Shown: positions 126 to 5,500 of the stretch, one piece after another | Layout: the number at the start of each line of letters is the position of its first letter | Numbering within the stretch: position 1 is the stretch's first letter | Assembly (NCBI GenBank): GCA_018260755.1 | Contig: JAGTWP010000076.1 | Span: 1 to 5,500, forward strand | Length of the DNA stretch: 5,500 bases | Direction of reading: 5' to 3' | From: Candidatus Altarchaeum sp. | GTDB taxonomy: Archaea > Altiarchaeota > Altiarchaeia > Altiarchaeales > Altiarchaeaceae | Translations under genes and position numbers: made by a program | The notes under the pieces: generated by a model | Databases searched by the model: none | What the model was told of the DNA's origin: nothing | Seen by the model: only the letters and a program-made list of their open reading frames with translations

Positions 126-902
126 TCATTGGCCATCAATAAATTTGAAGGTATTTATGCTGTGATTAAACTCATTAATGCTTAAATTGAAATATTTGGT
201 TAAGGATGTATAAGAAAGAGAATAAAAATACTCTCCTTTTTTAGCGATTATATTTATCTGTTTTAAACTATCGTTGCCATATGGGTGAGTGGATACTATT
301 TTTTCAGCTAATATGCCTCCAAGCGTTGTATTTTCGTAGGATATTTCCTTTATTTCTCTTCTTTTTGCAATTTCAAGACCTATCTTATGAATTGTTTGAT
401 TTGCATCAGATGGAAGCACATTGACACTAACAATATTAAACCAAGCACTTGTGTTTTTTTTGCCCCTAAATGCTATTCCGTTGTTGTACTTAAGGATTGT
501 CCATTCCATTGGAATTTCTACGGAAAAATTTAATAAATGGTTAGGATATAACAAATGGTTTGGAGAATAATTCGGAATAAAGCAGATTGTATAATTGCAT
601 GTAAGATTTCCCGTACATCCGCAATCTTCACAACAAGTTTCTTCGTTTTCATTATTTTCACGATTGCAGATGCCGTCACCACAGTATCCTTTACTTATAA
701 TTTCTTGATACTTGGAGGTATTGTTTTTATCCTGTAAGAAATTTAATGTATTTGACAAATTACTTACATTTTCTTTAGCATTTAACTTACTTTTTATATT
801 CTCCTGCAAGTTATTTGTATTTAAAAATAGAATAACTGCACCTATTGCTCCAATTAATACTAAAAATACTCCTATCTTTAATATAGATTTATGGTTTTTC
901 AT
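126..902 (-). CDS. P: membrane-anchored protein with a Cys-rich CGDGIC motif and a PsbP-like domain
   Basis: The 258-residue product is predicted to be exported and held by an N-terminal membrane segment (residues 8-28, after a short KNHK-type positive end). A low-complexity Asn/Lys linker (30-70) follows. Next is a Cys cluster, CGDGICNRENN...CCEDCGC (74-96), with further Cys at 102 and 107. The motif is of the CGDGxCN...E..C..DCG type that recurs in archaeal surface proteins. Residues about 122-256 look like a PsbP-type fold: FSVEIPMEW at its start, a central LGGILAEK, then GEYFYSLSY and a closing FNHSINTFKFID. PsbP-like is my pattern-level assignment. About a dozen N-x-S/T sites suit an extracellular glycoprotein. 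The start overlaps the end of the upstream L1 gene by 14 nt, so the two are probably co-transcribed and translationally coupled. The ligand or role is unknown. Confidence 0.82.
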   Translation of the reverse strand: MKNHKSILKIGVFLVLIGAIGAVILFLNTNNLQENIKSKLNAKENVSNLSNTLNFLQDKNNTSKYQEIISKGYCGDGICNRENNENEETCCEDCGCTGNLTCNYTICFIPNYSPNHLLYPNHLLNFSVEIPMEWTILKYNNGIAFRGKKNTSAWFNIVSVNVLPSDANQTIHKIGLEIAKRREIKEISYENTTLGGILAEKIVSTHPYGNDSLKQINIIAKKGEYFYSLSYTSLTKYFNLSINEFNHSINTFKFIDGQ

Positions 903-1782
903 AGTTTTTCAATTCAATCATTTCGGTTAAAACACCATCTTCTCTTTTCTCCATCTTTATAAGTATCCTCTTCTTAATATCTATCCAATAAGTAATAATC
1001 TCCCCAGAAATTTGTTTTCCTTCACTATACACGGTTTCGGTCTTAGAAATACTTATAACCTTAAAACAATCTATTCCATTTATTTTTTCAATATCTGCTA
1101 CTGTCCACTCCTGTTCATTTATCAATATGCCTGACCCATCCTTTTCGAAACCTGAGATATTAGATTTTTCGAGCCATTTTACTCCTTTATCTATATATAA
1201 CATCCACTTTGCAAACATTCCTTTCAAAACTGGACAAGTATGTTGTATATTCACTTCAAGTACTTCCCCATTTTCTTCATTTACGCCAATTATATCTCCT
1301 TCGAATATACCTGGGGGTTCACCCCTTATTTTTTTCCACACACCATTTTCACCTTTTTTTAAAATATACAAATAAACAGAAACTTCTTGTGATTTTAAGA
1401 TGTAGTAATTACTCTTATTTATTACATCTATTTTCATTACCTCTATGGTAGTATTATACTCCATTGGAACTTGGATGTTATTTTCATCACCTGGCATTTC
1501 CTCCCACCAATGATAAAAATATTTCTCACCTATTTTGAATTGTGGATCTGCTGTTCTATTAAGTTCTCTAAAAGTGGAATAATATGTTTCCCCTTGTTTA
1601 GTAGTATTTTCAATGTATACTGGTTCAACATATACATGGCTAAAATTTGTGATATTTTCATCACCTATTTTTTGTTTATTATTTTTATCATTGTTGTAAT
1701 CCAAGACAATAAATCCTCCGATAATTACCAATACTATTACTCCTATAATTGCCCCTATGTATATAATATTTTTATGTGTCAT
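889..1782 (-). CDS. L1: membrane-anchored surface protein, paralogue of the lipoprotein at 3535-4467
   Basis: The 297-residue protein has an N-terminal membrane anchor (residues 7-27) and an outside domain (about 50-297). It is clearly related to L2. Shared blocks in order are YVEP/YIEP, TADPQFKIGEKYFYH / TAEPYQFKVGETYIYH, INKSNYYILKSQEVSV / INKSEYWILKAEQVNV, KWMLYIDKGVK / EWALYLNEDVK, EKINGIDCFKV / EKINNKDCFKV and a terminal YWID...IELK. The F-x-[IV]-G-E-x-Y-x-Y opening and the alternating beta pattern recall LolA/DUF3108-like half-barrel lipoprotein domains, but I do not firmly recognise the family. Unlike L2 there is no lipobox Cys, so a transmembrane anchor replaces the lipid. The ATG at 1782 has no Shine-Dalgarno and a TATA-like box about 23 bp upstream. 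It overlaps and precedes the PsbP-like gene, suggesting a two-gene unit. Confidence 0.85.
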   Translation of the reverse strand: MTHKNIIYIGAIIGVIVLVIIGGFIVLDYNNDKNNKQKIGDENITNFSHVYVEPVYIENTTKQGETYYSTFRELNRTADPQFKIGEKYFYHWWEEMPGDENNIQVPMEYNTTIEVMKIDVINKSNYYILKSQEVSVYLYILKKGENGVWKKIRGEPPGIFEGDIIGVNEENGEVLEVNIQHTCPVLKGMFAKWMLYIDKGVKWLEKSNISGFEKDGSGILINEQEWTVADIEKINGIDCFKVISISKTETVYSEGKQISGEIITYWIDIKKRILIKMEKREDGVLTEMIELKNYEKP

Positions 1783-2177: not shown

Positions 2178-2504
2178 TTAACAACACCACTTTTGTATGG
2201 TTGCAGAACTTGAATAAGATGTCACCCATAGTTGCTCAGCGTCGGCCCAACAATCTACACTACCTGTGCTGTAAGACCAACCATTGCCCATTTGTCCATT
2301 AGCATACCCATCATAGAAGCCACAGATATTTGATAAATAACACTTAGCAGTATTGCCATTACCATATACTGTTTTTTCACTTATGCCACCCCCTGCGTTT
2401 ATCTTGCAATGTGCCATTTCTGCTACCGCTACTGAACTTATCATCATCCCTATCATTGCTATTCCTACCAACATTACCAATATCCCTATTTTTAATTTAT
2501 CCAT
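2178..2504 (-). CDS. S2: small secreted Cys-containing protein
   Basis: The product has 108 residues: a signal peptide (1 to about 28; core GILVMLVGIAMIGMMISSV, likely cleavage after AVA) and a mature part of about 80 residues rich in Gly, Ser, Asn, Trp and Tyr. Six mature Cys (AHC, AKC, NIC, VDC and a terminal WCC) suggest up to three disulfides outside the cell. The leader is almost identical to that of S1 (4561-4899): 21 consecutive nucleotides match (2467-2487 and 4865-4885), while the mature parts hardly align. Gene-specific cargo behind a constant leader is typical of secreted effector or peptide families, but nothing here proves an activity. The ATG lies 3 nt after the stop of a 39-codon ORF and has no Shine-Dalgarno of its own, so coupling is possible. 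A terminator follows. Function unknown. Confidence 0.8.
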   Translation of the reverse strand: MDKLKIGILVMLVGIAMIGMMISSVAVAEMAHCKINAGGGISEKTVYGNGNTAKCYLSNICGFYDGYANGQMGNGWSYSTGSVDCWADAEQLWVTSYSSSATIQKWCC

Positions 2505-2507
2505 TGC

Positions 2508-2627
2508 TCATATTTTAAATTTTTCAATATTTGGCTTTACCCGCCACGGTGGCATTCGCCGCCACGCTGCCCTATTTGCCTCCTTCTCCGTCATCGGCCA
2601 TACATCCTTTTTCAGGATGCGTCTCAT
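2508..2627 (-). CDS. Small GC-rich ORF (39 aa) or structured leader upstream of S2
   Basis: An ATG-to-TGA reading frame encodes a very basic, Trp-rich peptide: it begins MRRILKKDVWPMTEKEANRA, continues AWRRMPPWRVKP and ends IEKFKI. The stop is 3 nt before the S2 start. By hand count the stretch 2531-2627 is about 57% GC (2541-2600 about 67%) in a window near 30%, and it uses CGC, CGG and CGA codons that its neighbours avoid. It also folds on the minus strand: GCATCC/GGATGT, GTGGC/GCCAC and TGGC/GCCA hairpins in series, with CGTGGCGG occurring twice. A foreign mini-gene, a leader peptide or a structured RNA are all possible. Its first 56 nt overlap the end of the 138-codon frame at 2572-2988. 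No equivalent precedes S1. Confidence 0.4.
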   Translation of the reverse strand: MRRILKKDVWPMTEKEANRAAWRRMPPWRVKPNIEKFKI

Positions 2628-2988
2628 CAGGTTTTAATGAGTGTAAAAAAGGTGATGAAAGCATAAAAGAAATTGTATTTGTATATTTTCTATTGACTTC
2701 TCGTTTTAGAGGTTTTGTATTAATTACTTTCCATCCTTTAGAAACAAAAAATTGTAAATAATTTATCGTCTTGTTATTAAAAGAGGGCTTTGTTGATCTT
2801 AACACTATGATGTTAGGATTTTTCTTTTCCACAATTCTTTTTATCATATCTAAATTGTGCTCGTCTCTTATCTTTATATTTACAATTGGTGCCCAAGTAT
2901 TTTCTTTTTGAGAATTAGAAATTCTTGCAATATCAATATTATTTTTGTTTTGGAATTCACCTCTCCTCAAATGAGATTTTGAAATCAT
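2572..2988 (-). CDS. M: small alpha/beta protein resembling the C-terminal half of a FkbM-type methyltransferase
   Basis: The frame has 138 codons. Residues about 34-112 alternate as strand IVNIKI, helix LDMIKRIVEKKNP, strand NIIVLRS, helix KTINYLQFFVSKGW, strand KVINTKPL and strand NTISFML. This is the order of the C-terminal half of a class I methyltransferase. The KI-x-I...NPxIIVLxS spacing recalls the FkbM family, but the acidic KID residue is absent and there is no SAM-binding N-terminal half. Catalysis is therefore unlikely and the label is weak. It aligns without gaps to psiM (5154-5417), where the relative begins with Met at the position of Trp32. Residues 1-31 here may therefore not be native. 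The last 20 or so residues run into the GC-rich 39-codon ORF and have a different composition, so the true end is doubtful. A TATA-like box lies at about 3056-3070. Confidence 0.55.
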   Translation of the reverse strand: MISKSHLRRGEFQNKNNIDIARISNSQKENTWAPIVNIKIRDEHNLDMIKRIVEKKNPNIIVLRSTKPSFNNKTINYLQFFVSKGWKVINTKPLKREVNRKYTNTISFMLSSPFLHSLKPDETHPEKGCMADDGEGGK

Positions 2989-2998
2989 TTTTGATAAG
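2946..2998 (-). repeat. Copy B of an SD-containing hairpin element
   Basis: The minus strand reads TTTCAAAATCTC, a 7-nt loop (ATTTGAG), then GAGAGGTGAATTCCAAA. This is closely similar to copy A at 1913-1967. It covers the ATG at 2988 and the first codons of the M frame. The strong GAGGTGA is inside the frame, about 10 codons after that ATG, so the frame may really start further in at a non-ATG codon, or the upstream part may be leader. Confidence 0.35.
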
Positions 2999-3055
2999 TT
3001 GAATTTTTATTCTCATATTACAGCAGCAATTAAAATTTGGATTATAAGTAATTAA

Positions 3056-3070
3056 GTTTTTATATAATTA
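3056..3070 (-). promoter_or_regulatory. TATA-like box upstream of M
   Basis: The minus strand reads TAATTATATAAAAAC, a good match to the methanogen TTTATATA-type box. It lies about 75 bp before the ATG at 2988, which would give a leader of about 45 nt ending in the SD-containing hairpin element. The region is AT-rich, so the match is only moderately specific. Confidence 0.35.
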
Positions 3071-3087
3071 AATAATAATTAAAACTA

Positions 3088-3107
3088 TAAATAAATAAAT
3101 AAATAAA
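3088..3107. repeat. TAAA x5 microsatellite
   Basis: Five perfect TAAA units lie in tandem, followed by AATGCTGGG. On the minus strand this is a T-rich tract that could help end transcription coming from L2. Confidence 0.7.
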
Positions 3108-3281
3108 ATGCTGGGTATAATTAATTAAATTTTACAATAAATAAATTAAATTGATATTATAAATAATTATAAAAATTTCTAAATAAATTGATGTTGAATA
3201 GAAGGTTATATGGACGGCCTATATGAACGAGCGGTCTGTTATTATAGTCAATCTGTTGATTTTTCTATATTTTATCTTCTA

Positions 3282-3380
3282 TTATTTTCTTCCAAATTTC
3301 TTAAATATTACAACTACAGCAATTATACCTATTCCGATTATTGCATATCCGAGCAATAAACATGTTGCAAAATAACTTTT
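3282..3380 (-). pseudogene. Relic of a surface protein C-terminus (membrane anchor)
   Basis: The minus strand encodes KSYFATCLLLGYAIIGIGII followed by AVVVIFKKFGRK and a stop. This is a hydrophobic segment of about 23 residues with a basic tail, like the C-terminal anchors of archaeal surface proteins. A stop codon precedes it directly (3381-3383) and there is no start, so it is only the 3' scrap of a lost gene. It may belong with the -1-frame segment that ends at 3422, 41 nt upstream on the minus strand. Confidence 0.4.
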
Positions 3381-3418
3381 TTACATTTAAATTTTATTAG
3401 TTTTCACCCGTAAAATTT

Positions 3419-3550
3419 TTAATTTGCAACAACTCTAGTTATTTCAAACACATCAAGGGCATTTTTTGTTTTTGTTTCATCCCCCTTATATTCTTTATCT
3501 TCTTTATTTTCATTATATTCTTTATCTTTAATTTTTAATACATCTTTTTT
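3419..3550 (-). other. -1-frame continuation of L2 behind an A AAA AAG heptamer
   Basis: Near the end of L2 the codons ATA AAA AAG ATG TAT TAA contain the canonical -1 slippery heptamer A_AAA_AAG (3544-3550). Slipping back one base would replace MY-stop with 41 more residues, DVLKIKDKEYNENKEDKEYK plus a tail ending NALDVFEITRVVAN, to the TAA at 3419-3421. The same heptamer is in L3, where the extension is only AVLKIKDK. No obvious stimulatory hairpin is seen, and the simpler view is a decayed fragment of another gene. Confidence 0.3.
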
Positions 3551-3564
3551 ATTTCTTTTAATTC
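3521..3564. repeat. 44-nt block shared by the 3' ends of L2 and L3
   Basis: The last codons, stop and first 18 or so downstream bases of L2 are repeated at 5428-5471 at the end of L3, with only two mismatches (CAT versus CGG at 3541-3543 / 5448-5450). Identity that continues past the stop codon points to a recent duplication or gene conversion. Confidence 0.7.
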
Positions 3565-4467
3565 TATTTCTACATCAAGAAGAAAACCTTTATCAGTACC
3601 TATATATCCTTGATATTTCATAACCATTCTTGTTTGTTTATCTATCCAATATATATTTTTTCTTAAGTATGTTCTTTGAGATATTTTATCATTTACCTCC
3701 ACAAATCCACAATTTGTACTCTCTAATACTTCAACCTTAAAACAATCTTTATTATTTATTTTTTCAGAGTCAAGAACAGATATTTCCATTCTATTTCCAC
3801 ATTCTTTTTTATCTTTTCCAATAGCGCCCTTTGATTCTTGCACAATTTTAACATCTTCGTTTAAGTACAATGCCCATTCTGGGGGTATTTCCACAAATGT
3901 CTCCACACACATCGAATTAAGATTATTGGCATTAAGGCTAAAACCATAAGATAAATTGTTTTTATAGACAGCTATTATGGATCCTCCAAAAGATACCGGA
4001 ATAGGTGTTCCATCACCGTTTTCTATTAAATATCCCTTTCTAAATTGTCCATTAGGTAAAGGAACATAACATTGTGGAGTAACATTAACTTGTTCCGCTT
4101 TTAAAATCCAATATTCGCTTTTGTTTATTCTTTCAGACCTATCCACATGAACAGGTATGTCTATTTCTACTGGCTCACATTGTGACTCTGTCCATCCAAC
4201 AAAGGTTGGATGTATATGATAAATATAAGTTTCGCCTACTTTAAATTGATATGGCTCTGCGGTTGGTTTAAGTCCCTTTAATGTGTTTATTGTCTCAGTC
4301 ATTTTTATCTCCCCTTCTAGAGGTTCAATATATGAATCGTCTGATGTGTTCAGTATTGTGCTTTGATTATTTTCAGAGCTCTTTTCTTTTGTTGGAGTAT
4401 TTTCATTTAAACATCCGCTGATAAATACAATCAATCCTATAATTAAAATTATAATTATTTTTTTCAT
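3535..4467 (-). CDS. L2: surface lipoprotein, paralogue of L1 and L3
   Basis: The 310-residue product has a lipoprotein signal peptide (KK, then IIIILIIGLIVF, lipobox ISGC with Cys19). An Asn/Ser/Thr/Lys linker (20-45) and an outside domain (about 46-310) follow. The domain shares with L1 the TAEPYQFKVGETYIYH opening, INKSEYWILKAEQVNV, EWALYLNEDVK, KINNKDCFKV and a closing YWID...IELKEIKK. This beta-rich pattern is reminiscent of LolA/DUF3108-like ligand-binding half-barrels, but the family is not firmly recognised. L2 has six further Cys (97, 133, 187, 223, 242, 253) that may form disulfides; only the DCF Cys is shared in position with L1. The ATG has no Shine-Dalgarno, and a TATA-like box sits about 28 bp before it. 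The gene follows S1 by 93 bp, across a U-tract. A slippery-type heptamer occurs just before its stop. Confidence 0.87.
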   Translation of the reverse strand: MKKIIIILIIGLIVFISGCLNENTPTKEKSSENNQSTILNTSDDSYIEPLEGEIKMTETINTLKGLKPTAEPYQFKVGETYIYHIHPTFVGWTESQCEPVEIDIPVHVDRSERINKSEYWILKAEQVNVTPQCYVPLPNGQFRKGYLIENGDGTPIPVSFGGSIIAVYKNNLSYGFSLNANNLNSMCVETFVEIPPEWALYLNEDVKIVQESKGAIGKDKKECGNRMEISVLDSEKINNKDCFKVEVLESTNCGFVEVNDKISQRTYLRKNIYWIDKQTRMVMKYQGYIGTDKGFLLDVEIELKEIKKMY

Positions 4468-4490
4468 ATTTGATTTTTAAAGTCGGTTAA

Positions 4491-4500
4491 TTTTTAAAGC
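4491..4500 (-). promoter_or_regulatory. TATA-like box for L2
   Basis: The minus strand reads GCTTTAAAAA with its centre about 28 bp before the ATG at 4467, so the message would start near the ATG. The same spacing is seen for L1, and neither gene has a ribosome binding site. The evidence is weak because of the base composition. Confidence 0.3.
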
Positions 4501-4511
4501 ATTTTTCTAAA

Positions 4512-4527
4512 TAAAAAATTAAAAAAA
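4512..4527 (-). terminator. U-tract terminator after S1
   Basis: About 35 nt past the S1 stop, the minus strand carries T7-AA-T6-A-TTT. Archaeal RNA polymerase can terminate on such tracts without a hairpin, and none is obvious. If it works, L2 is transcribed from its own promoter. Confidence 0.4.
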
Positions 4528-4560
4528 GTATTTTATGTCGGTCACTAAAATTTCATTAAT

Positions 4561-4899
4561 TCACATGCAACCTACTTTGGCATATACAAAGTTATATCCT
4601 CCTGAAGATGCTAATGCCTTGAAACTTTTTCCTGAAACACAACACATTCCGTAATTTGATGCTGACTGTTGATGTCCAGATCCATCTATTGCATTTGCAT
4701 TACCACTTCCTTCTGATCCTTGATTACAAGTCATAGTAACATAATATTGTGGAGAGAAGGTTAGTTGGCCAGTACAATGTGAAGTATTGGGATAATTTTG
4801 TGTGTGAACATATACATAATTAGCACCCACCGAACTCACTATCATCCCAAGGATTGCTATTACAACCAACATTACCAATATCCCTGTTTTTAAATCCAT
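4561..4899 (-). CDS. S1: small secreted Cys-containing protein
   Basis: The product has 112 residues: a signal peptide (1 to about 26; GILVMLVVIAILGMIVSSV, likely cleavage after VGA) and a mature part rich in Ser, Gly, Asn, Gln and Tyr. The mature part has five Cys (SHC, MTC, MCC and a terminal GCM). The leader matches S2 almost residue for residue. The bases just upstream of the ATG (AAAAATTTAAA-x-AT) are also shared. Beyond the leader only faint similarity remains. It is exported and probably disulfide-bonded; whether it is a toxin-like peptide, an adhesin or a matrix component cannot be told. A strong TATA box lies about 105 bp upstream, and a palindrome with direct repeats lies about 70 bp beyond that, so this gene looks regulated. 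L2 follows. Confidence 0.8.
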   Translation of the reverse strand: MDLKTGILVMLVVIAILGMIVSSVGANYVYVHTQNYPNTSHCTGQLTFSPQYYVTMTCNQGSEGSGNANAIDGSGHQQSASNYGMCCVSGKSFKALASSGGYNFVYAKVGCM

Positions 4900-4929
4900 T
4901 TTGTGTTTTATGTTTAAATTTTTTTATTT

Positions 4930-4980
4930 AATTTTCCCATTTCAGGGACCATTGTCATTCAGAGAATGCTTCTTGAATCT
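4930..4980 (-). other. Leader with hairpins upstream of S1
   Basis: Between the TATA box and S1 the minus strand holds a less AT-rich segment with GAATGC...GCATTC (6-bp stem, 15-nt loop) and TCCC...GGGA (4-bp stem) hairpins. Only very short frames (12-15 codons) are present, with no relative of the GC-rich 39-codon ORF that precedes S2. Confidence 0.3.
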
Positions 4981-4997
4981 ATGTGCATTCCTGTCAT

Positions 4998-5013
4998 TTT
5001 ATATATTATAAAT
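4998..5013 (-). promoter_or_regulatory. TATA box of the S1 promoter
   Basis: The minus strand reads TTTATAATATATAAAA, the best archaeal TATA-box match in the window. Transcription would start near 4975, giving S1 a leader of about 75 nt. The palindrome/direct-repeat cluster at 5073-5100 is upstream of it. Confidence 0.5.
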
Positions 5014-5072
5014 ATGATGAAAAAGCATAAATATTAGCAATGAAAAGCTTTTTACAAAGGCATGAAAAAGGT

Positions 5073-5100
5073 TGAAAACGTTTTCACGGTTTTTCACGGT
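5073..5100. promoter_or_regulatory. Palindrome plus tandem 10-mers, candidate operator
   Basis: TGAAAACGTTTTCA (5073-5086) is a perfect 14-bp palindrome. It overlaps two perfect tandem copies of TTTTCACGGT (5081-5090 and 5091-5100). Several TGAAAA half-sites spaced about one helical turn apart, 60-90 bp upstream of the S1 TATA box, suit an activator or repressor site. The regulator is not known. Confidence 0.45.
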
Positions 5101-5153
5101 GCGTAAAAATTCCAAAAAAATAAAATAGTTTTTTGTTTTGATTTGTTTCGTTT

Positions 5154-5417
5154 TCATTTTTTGTAACTATTTTTTGGCTTTGTTATCATAAATTGTAACA
5201 AATTATTCTCATAATTTTCTTTTCTATCGCTATACTTTACCTTGACTGGATTGAATCCTTTTTTGATTAATTCCTGTGTAATTCTACCTGTTTTTGTATT
5301 GTATTCAAATTTTAAACTTTCCAACGCTAAAATTTCAAATCTTTCGTTTTCTATCTTTGCCTGTATATCCTTTACTTCTATATTATATCAAATTTGTATC
5401 TTTAAAATTGCTGGCAT
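5154..5417 (-). pseudogene. psiM: M relative interrupted by an in-frame TGA
   Basis: From the ATG at 5415-5417 the frame reads MPAILKIQI, then TGA (5388-5390), then 77 more codons to a TGA at 5154-5156. It aligns without gaps to M (2572-2988): MPAILKIQI with WAPIVNIKI, the TGA with Arg41 (AGA in M, so one substitution), ILALESLKFEYNTKT with IIVLRSTKPSFNNKT, ITQELIKKGF with YLQFFVSKGW and FMITKP with FMLSSP. It therefore shows the same C-terminal methyltransferase-like alpha/beta pattern. It starts 24 bp after L3 and ends about 255 bp before S1. TGA-encoded selenocysteine is unlikely because the aligned residue is Arg. Confidence 0.55.
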
Positions 5418-5441
5418 TTTGTTGTTATTTATCTTTAATTT

Positions 5442-5500
5442 TTAATACGGCTTTTTTATTTCTTTTAATTCATACCATTGCTCAAGAAAACGCCCGCCGC
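5442..5500 (-). CDS. L3: C-terminal end of a third L-family paralogue (partial)
   Basis: The last 19 codons before the window edge encode GGRFLEQWYELKEIKKPY and a stop, matching the L2 end GFLLDVEIELKEIKKMY. The DNA is nearly identical to that of L2 over 44 nt, through the stop codon and into the 3' flank. The rest of the gene lies beyond 5500. This places an L gene directly upstream of psiM and S1, mirroring L2 upstream of M and S2. Confidence 0.65.
   Translation of the reverse strand, partial: GGRFLEQWYELKEIKKPY

What the first reader, a model, noticed from the sequence alone, without database searches (positions are those of the whole stretch)
2178..5500. Tandemly duplicated three-gene cassette: L (surface lipoprotein) - M (alpha/beta) - S (small secreted Cys protein)
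In transcription order the window reads L3-psiM-S1 and then L2-M-S2, followed by a third L gene (L1) with a PsbP-like partner. All three gene types are paralogous between the two units: L by many shared blocks, M by an ungapped alignment, S by the leader. Repeated co-duplication of these three suggests they belong together. The combination of a surface-anchored protein, a small alpha/beta protein and a variable secreted peptide does not match any system I can name.
Basis: partly seen in the sequence, partly recalled or inferred. Interest (0 to 1): 0.7.

Follow-up and report, generated by a model that had tools for sequence, protein, structure and literature searches.

The report
Archaeal secreted-protein cassettes with shared heads
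In the biofilm archaeon genus Altarchaeum, many different small secreted proteins, almost always encoded just before a surface-anchored LolA-like partner, are placed behind a few nearly identical "heads" (regulator, promoter and start of the export signal), which suggests that recombination keeps swapping what the cells secrete.

Summary
The window is one 5.5-kb contig of a Candidatus Altarchaeum genome. It reads, on the minus strand, L3 end - psiM - S2 - L2 - M - S1 - L1 - P. L, M and S are each real paralogous families that recur together across the genus: 16 of 18 S genes found genome-wide are followed within about 410 bp by an L gene, and all 10 M genes sit just upstream of a signal-peptide gene. 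The true unit is M-S-L(-L/P), not L-M-S. L is a LolA-like, membrane-anchored ectodomain family. S is a family only in its leader: its mature parts fall into 13 types with no detectable homology. The most interesting fact lies outside the window. In the same genus three S genes share a 444-bp head (wHTH regulator, promoter, first 44 nt of the signal peptide) at 100% identity, then become unrelated. Heads are 98-100% alike within a genome and about 87% between species (concerted evolution). Window S2 and its positional counterpart in another species share upstream DNA at 82% but carry unrelated mature proteins. Best reading: a recombining expression-and-secretion head with exchangeable S-L bodies, probably effectors with a surface partner. 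The function is inferred, not shown.

The parts
126..902 (-). P: N-terminal TM, Cys-rich CGDGICN...CCEDCG motif, weakly PsbP-like C-terminal part; follows L1
   Evidence: Pfam PsbP E 0.15, PsbP_2 E 0.28, both below cut-off; paralogue on G000:C56 behind the paralogous L; fused to an L-type domain in two other loci
889..1782 (-). L1: TM-anchored LolA-like family ectodomain, 297 aa
   Evidence: L family E 3e-68; paralogue G000:C56 10035-10952, 49% identity, dN/dS 0.27
2178..2504 (-). S1: Sec leader plus 82-aa mature part with 6 Cys
   Evidence: S family; mature part related only to G000:C56 Sa (Z about 15), whose L and P are also the relatives of L1 and P
2430..2504 (-). S1 leader module, conserved at DNA level among paralogues
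   Evidence: 82.7% identity over 75 nt with the S2 leader, about 25% in register beyond it
2572..2988 (-). M: 138-aa protein, predicted beta-alpha-beta-alpha-beta-beta; upstream of S1
   Evidence: M family; low-confidence model, secondary structure; Alba-like only as a fold lead
3282..3442 (.). Remnant of another surface-protein 3' end plus a dispersed repeat between L2 and M; not part of the unit
   Evidence: 91% match of its first part to the 3' end of a 690-aa protein gene in G003:C100; second part in about 20 places in the genome
3535..4467 (-). L2: lipobox (ISGC) LolA-like family ectodomain, 310 aa
   Evidence: L family E 1e-95; model pLDDT 67.6; Foldseek best hits YmcC-like lipoproteins and LmcA, E 1e-5 to 8e-4
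4561..4899 (-). S2: Sec leader plus 86-aa mature part with 5 Cys
   Evidence: S family; upstream DNA and leader 82% identical to G003:C67 Sb over 616 bp, mature parts unrelated
4822..4899 (-). S2 leader module (signal peptide, about 26 codons); similarity to other S genes ends here
5142..5426 (-). psiM: M paralogue with an internal TGA
5442..5500 (-). L3: last 18 codons of a third L gene, cut by the contig end

Best explanation
The window is part of a genus-specific, recombining family of small operons: [regulator M, or in other units a ThrRS-editing-domain::wHTH regulator 'R'] - promoter - S (secreted) - L (surface-anchored, LolA-like) - often a second L or P. SHOWN: the 5' head (regulator, promoter, leader start) is one homologous module shared by S genes whose mature parts are unrelated; homology stops abruptly inside or at the end of the signal peptide; heads are homogenised within a genome; S body and L travel together. 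INFERRED: homologous recombination or gene conversion between heads moves S-L bodies in and out from behind a common regulated export head, so the cell diversifies what it secretes while keeping control and export constant. MOST LIKELY ROLE (inferred): S products are secreted effectors (antagonistic or self/non-self recognition proteins) in dense Altarchaeum biofilms, and L is the cognate surface or periplasmic partner (protective, binding or anchoring). M and R act as local regulators of the operon.
For: Adjacency: 16 of 18 genome-wide S genes followed by L within about 410 bp; M directly upstream of S in 6 of 10. 17 units: only 5 of 136 pairs have homologous mature S, and these 5 are among the closest L pairs (L Z 73-187); all other mature pairs Z 4 or less; leader identity uncorrelated with mature similarity, Mantel p 0.30. 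444-bp head 100% identical in three copies of G003:C104 with three unrelated bodies. G000 heads 98% alike against 86-88% between species. Window S2 and G003:C67 Sb share 82% DNA identity from -530 to +78, then unrelated mature parts and only 23%-identical L. G000:C22 and C56a: 88% to +77, mature Z 0. S bodies are constrained (dN/dS 0.3-0.7), so the differences look like replacement, not runaway point mutation. One S body carries PepSY/DUF4901 domains and pairs with a different lipoprotein. The head's R carries HTH hits.
Against: No S body other than the PepSY one matches a known domain, so 'effector' is a guess. L is homologous across units whose S bodies are not, and L also occurs in tandem without S, which fits poorly with strict immunity. 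Switching within one population was not observed; only between-copy and between-species comparison was possible. All genomes are fragmented MAGs. The window's own S1 and S2 share only the leader, not a long head.
Confidence: 0.48

Rival explanations
1. Surface-coat or matrix assembly: S proteins are small, Cys- and Tyr-rich structural or adhesive proteins of the biofilm, exported by Sec, and L (LolA-like) is the chaperone or anchor that carries or holds them in the two-membrane envelope. The shared head simply gives common regulation.
For: Several S bodies are rich in Tyr, Gly, Ser and Cys. L has a LolA/YmcC/LprG-like fold. Ca. Altiarchaeum has two membranes and makes a biofilm with hami (PMC4460559). 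Some M genes stand before cohesin/dockerin or other secreted proteins.
Against: Unrelated S bodies differing from 85 to 409 aa, one with PepSY domains, are odd for a common structure; a body differs between species at the same position.
Confidence: 0.28
2. Neutral gene-family churn: segmental duplications of a promoter plus signal-peptide segment fuse to whatever lies downstream in a fast-rearranging, repeat-rich genome; there is no system and no selected swapping.
For: The genome has dispersed repeats, gene remnants (3282-3442), a decayed M copy and thrS-derived segments.
Against: S-L linkage kept for 16 of 18 S; constraint on S, L and M (dN/dS below 1); head identity falls off upstream (about 84-91% at -500 to -400 against 100% from -400 to +44), as in gene conversion rather than one recent duplication.
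Confidence: 0.17
3. Conserved signal peptide plus accelerated point evolution of one toxin-like family (venom-like), without recombination.
For: Conserved leader, variable Cys-containing mature part.
Against: Abrupt loss of all similarity after 400 bp or more of 100% identity; unrelated lengths and domains; dN/dS below 1 in alignable pairs.
Confidence: 0.05

Closest known systems
VARTIG modules of Thermococcales (Makarova et al. 2021, PMC8416519)
   Same: Lineage-restricted archaeal loci of secreted or surface proteins with a variable part made by recombination and changing downstream genes; function unknown, conflict proposed
   Different: VARTIG is centred on a large Ig-domain protein with a hypervariable C-terminal domain; here the constant part is regulator-promoter-leader DNA, the body is a small secreted protein, and the partner is LolA-like. 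No Ig-domain hit in the window proteins
Polymorphic toxin systems (PMC3482391)
   Same: Constant 5' or trafficking part with exchangeable 3' part followed by a partner gene
   Different: No trafficking domain beyond a Sec leader, no recognised toxin domain, and the partner family stays the same while bodies change
Bacteriocin/immunity arrays with shared leaders (for example pneumococcal blp; from memory, a lead only)
   Same: Small secreted proteins with near-identical leaders, each followed by a membrane partner, in arrays
   Different: Sec leader instead of double-glycine leader; no killing shown; L is much larger than usual immunity proteins
LolA/LolB/LprG/YmcC lipoprotein superfamily (PF17131, DUF3108)
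   Same: Pfam hits in 11 of 29 L members and Foldseek best hits for L2
   Different: Window L2 itself does not reach a Pfam match; here it is multiplied and paired with secreted proteins in an archaeon

Membership tests
LolA-like superfamily (PF17131) | Profile match | tested here: met
   11 of 29 L-family members match LolA_like (best 2.1e-8) and 4 match DUF3108; the window L2 itself matches neither in its own scan. Met for the family, not for each member
LolA-like superfamily (PF17131) | Incomplete beta-barrel fold | tested here: met
   L2 model pLDDT 67.6; Foldseek top hits YmcC-like lipoproteins and LmcA, then LprG and LolB (E 1e-5 to 0.03); TM-scores are low (0.24-0.47), so moderate support
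LolA-like superfamily (PF17131) | Binds lipid or lipoprotein acyl chains | not testable with these tools
   needs biochemistry
Alba (PF01918), for M | Sequence profile match | tested here: not met
   hhalign of the M alignment with archaeal Alba: probability 0.2; the Alba profile does not find M in the own genome
Alba (PF01918), for M | beta-alpha-beta-alpha-beta-beta fold | tested here: inconclusive
   the model has that order and VIA-align's best rows are Alba (Z 7.6, rmsd 2.1), but pLDDT is 49 and Z is under 8
Polymorphic toxin systems | Recognisable toxin domain with cognate immunity gene | tested here: not met
   No toxin domain in window proteins (Pfam; PADLOC; PHROGs)
VARTIG | Large Ig-domain protein with hypervariable C-terminal Ig domain | tested here: not met
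   No Ig-fold domain in window proteins
PsbP, for P | Profile above cut-off | tested here: not met
   PsbP 12.5 bits against cut-off 23.5; PsbP_2 11.6 against 27
Bacteriocin/immunity systems | Killing of relatives and protection by the partner | not testable with these tools
   needs expression and killing assays
Diversity-generating retroelements | Reverse transcriptase with template/variable repeat pair | not tested
   no dedicated search; whole-body replacement is unlike adenine-directed mutagenesis

The most novel reading that the evidence does not exclude
An archaeal variation system: gene conversion keeps several regulator-promoter-signal-peptide heads identical, and recombination at the signal peptide moves different secreted-protein/surface-partner bodies behind them, so that an uncultivated biofilm archaeon reshuffles its secreted repertoire much as pathogens vary their surface antigens.
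Probability: 0.3. Interest if true: 0.8.

Novelty: new variant of a known kind. Interest (0 to 1): 0.56.

Why it matters
Archaeal social and conflict systems are poorly known, and Altarchaeum is an abundant, uncultivated, biofilm-forming, two-membrane archaeon of the deep subsurface. A family in which unrelated secreted proteins are repeatedly joined to a constant regulated export head, each next to a LolA-like partner, gives a concrete handle on how such cells vary what they show or release, and makes S-L interaction and body-switching directly testable in existing metagenomes.

Tried and rejected
Genome-contig scan with L2 alone found nothing. L and M alignments were too diverse to seed viral-contig scans, so presence in viruses is untested. 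Alba membership of M was not supported by profile comparison. Weak DpnI/Dam-replacing (E 0.003) and GNAT (Foldseek E 0.002 on a pLDDT-49 model) hits for M were not followed. An integration-site idea (thrS as attachment site, because all thrS fragments end near nt 373-393) was dropped: that end is the in-frame junction of a ThrRS editing domain with a wHTH. PADLOC gave no defence match to the window proteins; PHROGs gave only weak hits, for L2 mainly to the signal region. No Rfam match. No Mantel correlation between S and L over all pairs (p 0.13), because S has no signal outside 5 pairs. The 2019 archaeal antimicrobial-peptide/polymorphic-toxin survey was not held.
Full report
What the window is. 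The window is the whole of contig C37 (5500 bp) of a 1.3-Mb archaeal MAG. All genes discussed are on the minus strand. In transcription order: L3 (last 18 codons), psiM, S2, L2, M, S1, L1, P.

Check of the observation. ORFs and paralogies are confirmed. Iterative profile searches gave a family of about 46 L ORFs, 16-20 S, 8 M and 5 P in the fetched loci. Profile searches of the 29 genomes of the class confirmed these families: L in 5 genomes (4 of the genus and 1 other), S and M in the genus and one further genome. M and psiM are true relatives, and an intact counterpart of psiM lies in G003:C67; psiM has an internal TGA.

The unit. Of 18 S genes found genome-wide in the genus, 16 are followed on the same strand by L within about 410 bp. 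As a rough yardstick of my own, about 40 L genes in about 5 Mb would give such a neighbour by chance in roughly 0.2% of cases. Six of 10 M genes lie directly upstream of S; the other four lie upstream of another gene with an N-terminal signal sequence. So the unit is M-S-L(-L or P), not L-M-S. G000:C56 carries a paralogous M-S-L-P set in the same order as psiM or M, S1, L1, P, followed by S-L, S-L-L and L-P fusion units. In some S-L units without M, the gene upstream of S is a chimeric ORF: a complete archaeal ThrRS editing domain (PF08915, E 1e-45) fused in frame to a winged helix. Elsewhere the corresponding winged helix sits at the C-terminal end of larger proteins. Thus a small putative regulator precedes S in most units whose upstream sequence is available.

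Nature of the parts. L has an N-terminal TM or lipobox (7 of 29 by pattern) and a LolA-like domain: PF17131 in 11 of 29 members, best 2e-8. The L2 model (pLDDT 67.6) finds YmcC-like lipoproteins, LmcA, LprG and LolB. S has a 26-residue Sec-type leader and a mature part with 2-10 Cys. M is predicted beta-alpha-beta-alpha-beta-beta; the best structural rows are Alba, but the model has pLDDT 49 and profile comparison with Alba fails, so this is only a lead.

Key finding: constant heads, exchangeable bodies. Across 17 S-L units, only 5 of 136 pairs have homologous mature S parts (Z 15-44; all others 4 or less), which leaves 13 unrelated mature types. Those 5 pairs are among the closest L pairs (Z 73-187). 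Leader DNA identity averages 75% and is unrelated to mature similarity. In G003:C104 three S genes carry a 444-bp head (winged helix, promoter, 5' UTR, first 44 nt of the leader) at 100% identity, followed by bodies of 131, 87 and 409 aa that are unrelated. The 409-aa body carries PepSY/DUF4901 domains and is followed by a different lipoprotein. The ThrRS-derived part just upstream is only 84-91% alike at -500 to -400, so identity is focused on the regulator-promoter-leader tract. In G000 the homologous heads are 98% alike, while heads of the two species are 86-88% alike. Higher identity within than between genomes is concerted evolution, that is, gene conversion or lineage-specific duplication; the identity gradient favours conversion. 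In G000, units C22 and C56a share M, promoter and leader at 88% up to +77, then unrelated mature parts. Between species, window S2 and G003:C67 Sb share 82% DNA identity from -530 (through psiM/M) to +78; the mature parts are unrelated and the L genes only 23% identical. The body has therefore been replaced at one position. Misassembly cannot make this pattern: permuting identical heads would still leave each body behind a head, and the 82% and 88% comparisons do not involve identical repeats. Alignable S, L and M pairs are under constraint (dN/dS 0.19-0.72), so the genes are used and differ by replacement rather than by fast point change.

How it most likely works. Shown: common heads, abrupt junctions, homogenisation, S-L linkage. 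Inferred: recombination between heads exchanges S-L bodies behind a common regulated, Sec-directed expression site. Proposed role (about 0.5): diversified secreted effectors or recognition proteins with a surface partner in dense biofilms. Main rival (about 0.3): structural or adhesive surface proteins, with L as carrier or anchor in the two-membrane envelope described for Ca. Altiarchaeum (PMC4460559). Against simple toxin/immunity: no toxin domain, and L is conserved across unrelated S and outnumbers it.

Relation to the known. The logic resembles polymorphic toxin systems and the VARTIG modules of Thermococcales (PMC8416519), but their defining domains are absent. Eight literature searches turned up no description of this family in Altiarchaea. 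I rate it a new variant of a known kind.

Limits. All genomes are fragmented MAGs (65-87% complete in the genus), only four genomes of the genus were available, no read-level or expression data were available, and functions rest on fold similarity and neighbourhood.

Noticed in passing
L071 9104-9796 and L010 12195-12998: Chimeric putative regulator: complete ThrRS editing domain (PF08915) fused in frame to a winged helix, encoded just upstream of the S promoter and present in several copies beside the intact thrS.
   Followed up: partly
window 3282-3442: Between L2 and M: a remnant matching the 3' end (TM anchor) of a 690-aa surface-type protein gene, joined to an approximately 85-bp dispersed repeat found in about 20 places of the genome.
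   Followed up: partly
L071 9919-11145: S-type leader on a 409-aa protein with PepSY/DUF4901 domains; its N-terminal part has SGHGND and TCES segments that by eye recall caspase/gingipain-like peptidases (no Pfam support). Its neighbour is a lipoprotein outside the L family.
   Followed up: partly
L010 14025-15155: Matrixin-type (M10) secreted metallopeptidase with a leader segment like that of S, immediately upstream of an L gene.
   Followed up: no
L068 5522-8358: M is followed by two secreted or membrane proteins with cohesin domains, one also with PKD and a weak dockerin hit, in an archaeon.
   Followed up: no
L069 457-4511, L059, L070: Tandem L genes lie next to ABC ATPase and ABC-2-like permease genes in several loci.
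   Followed up: no
L010 2582-4213 and L071 7076-9001: L-type domain fused to the P (Cys motif plus PsbP-like) domain in one long protein, suggesting that L and P act together.
   Followed up: no
window 2530-2620: GC-rich stretch (CCCGCCACGGTGGC...GCCGCCACGCTGCC) in a very AT-rich contig, overlapping the 3' end of M.
   Followed up: no
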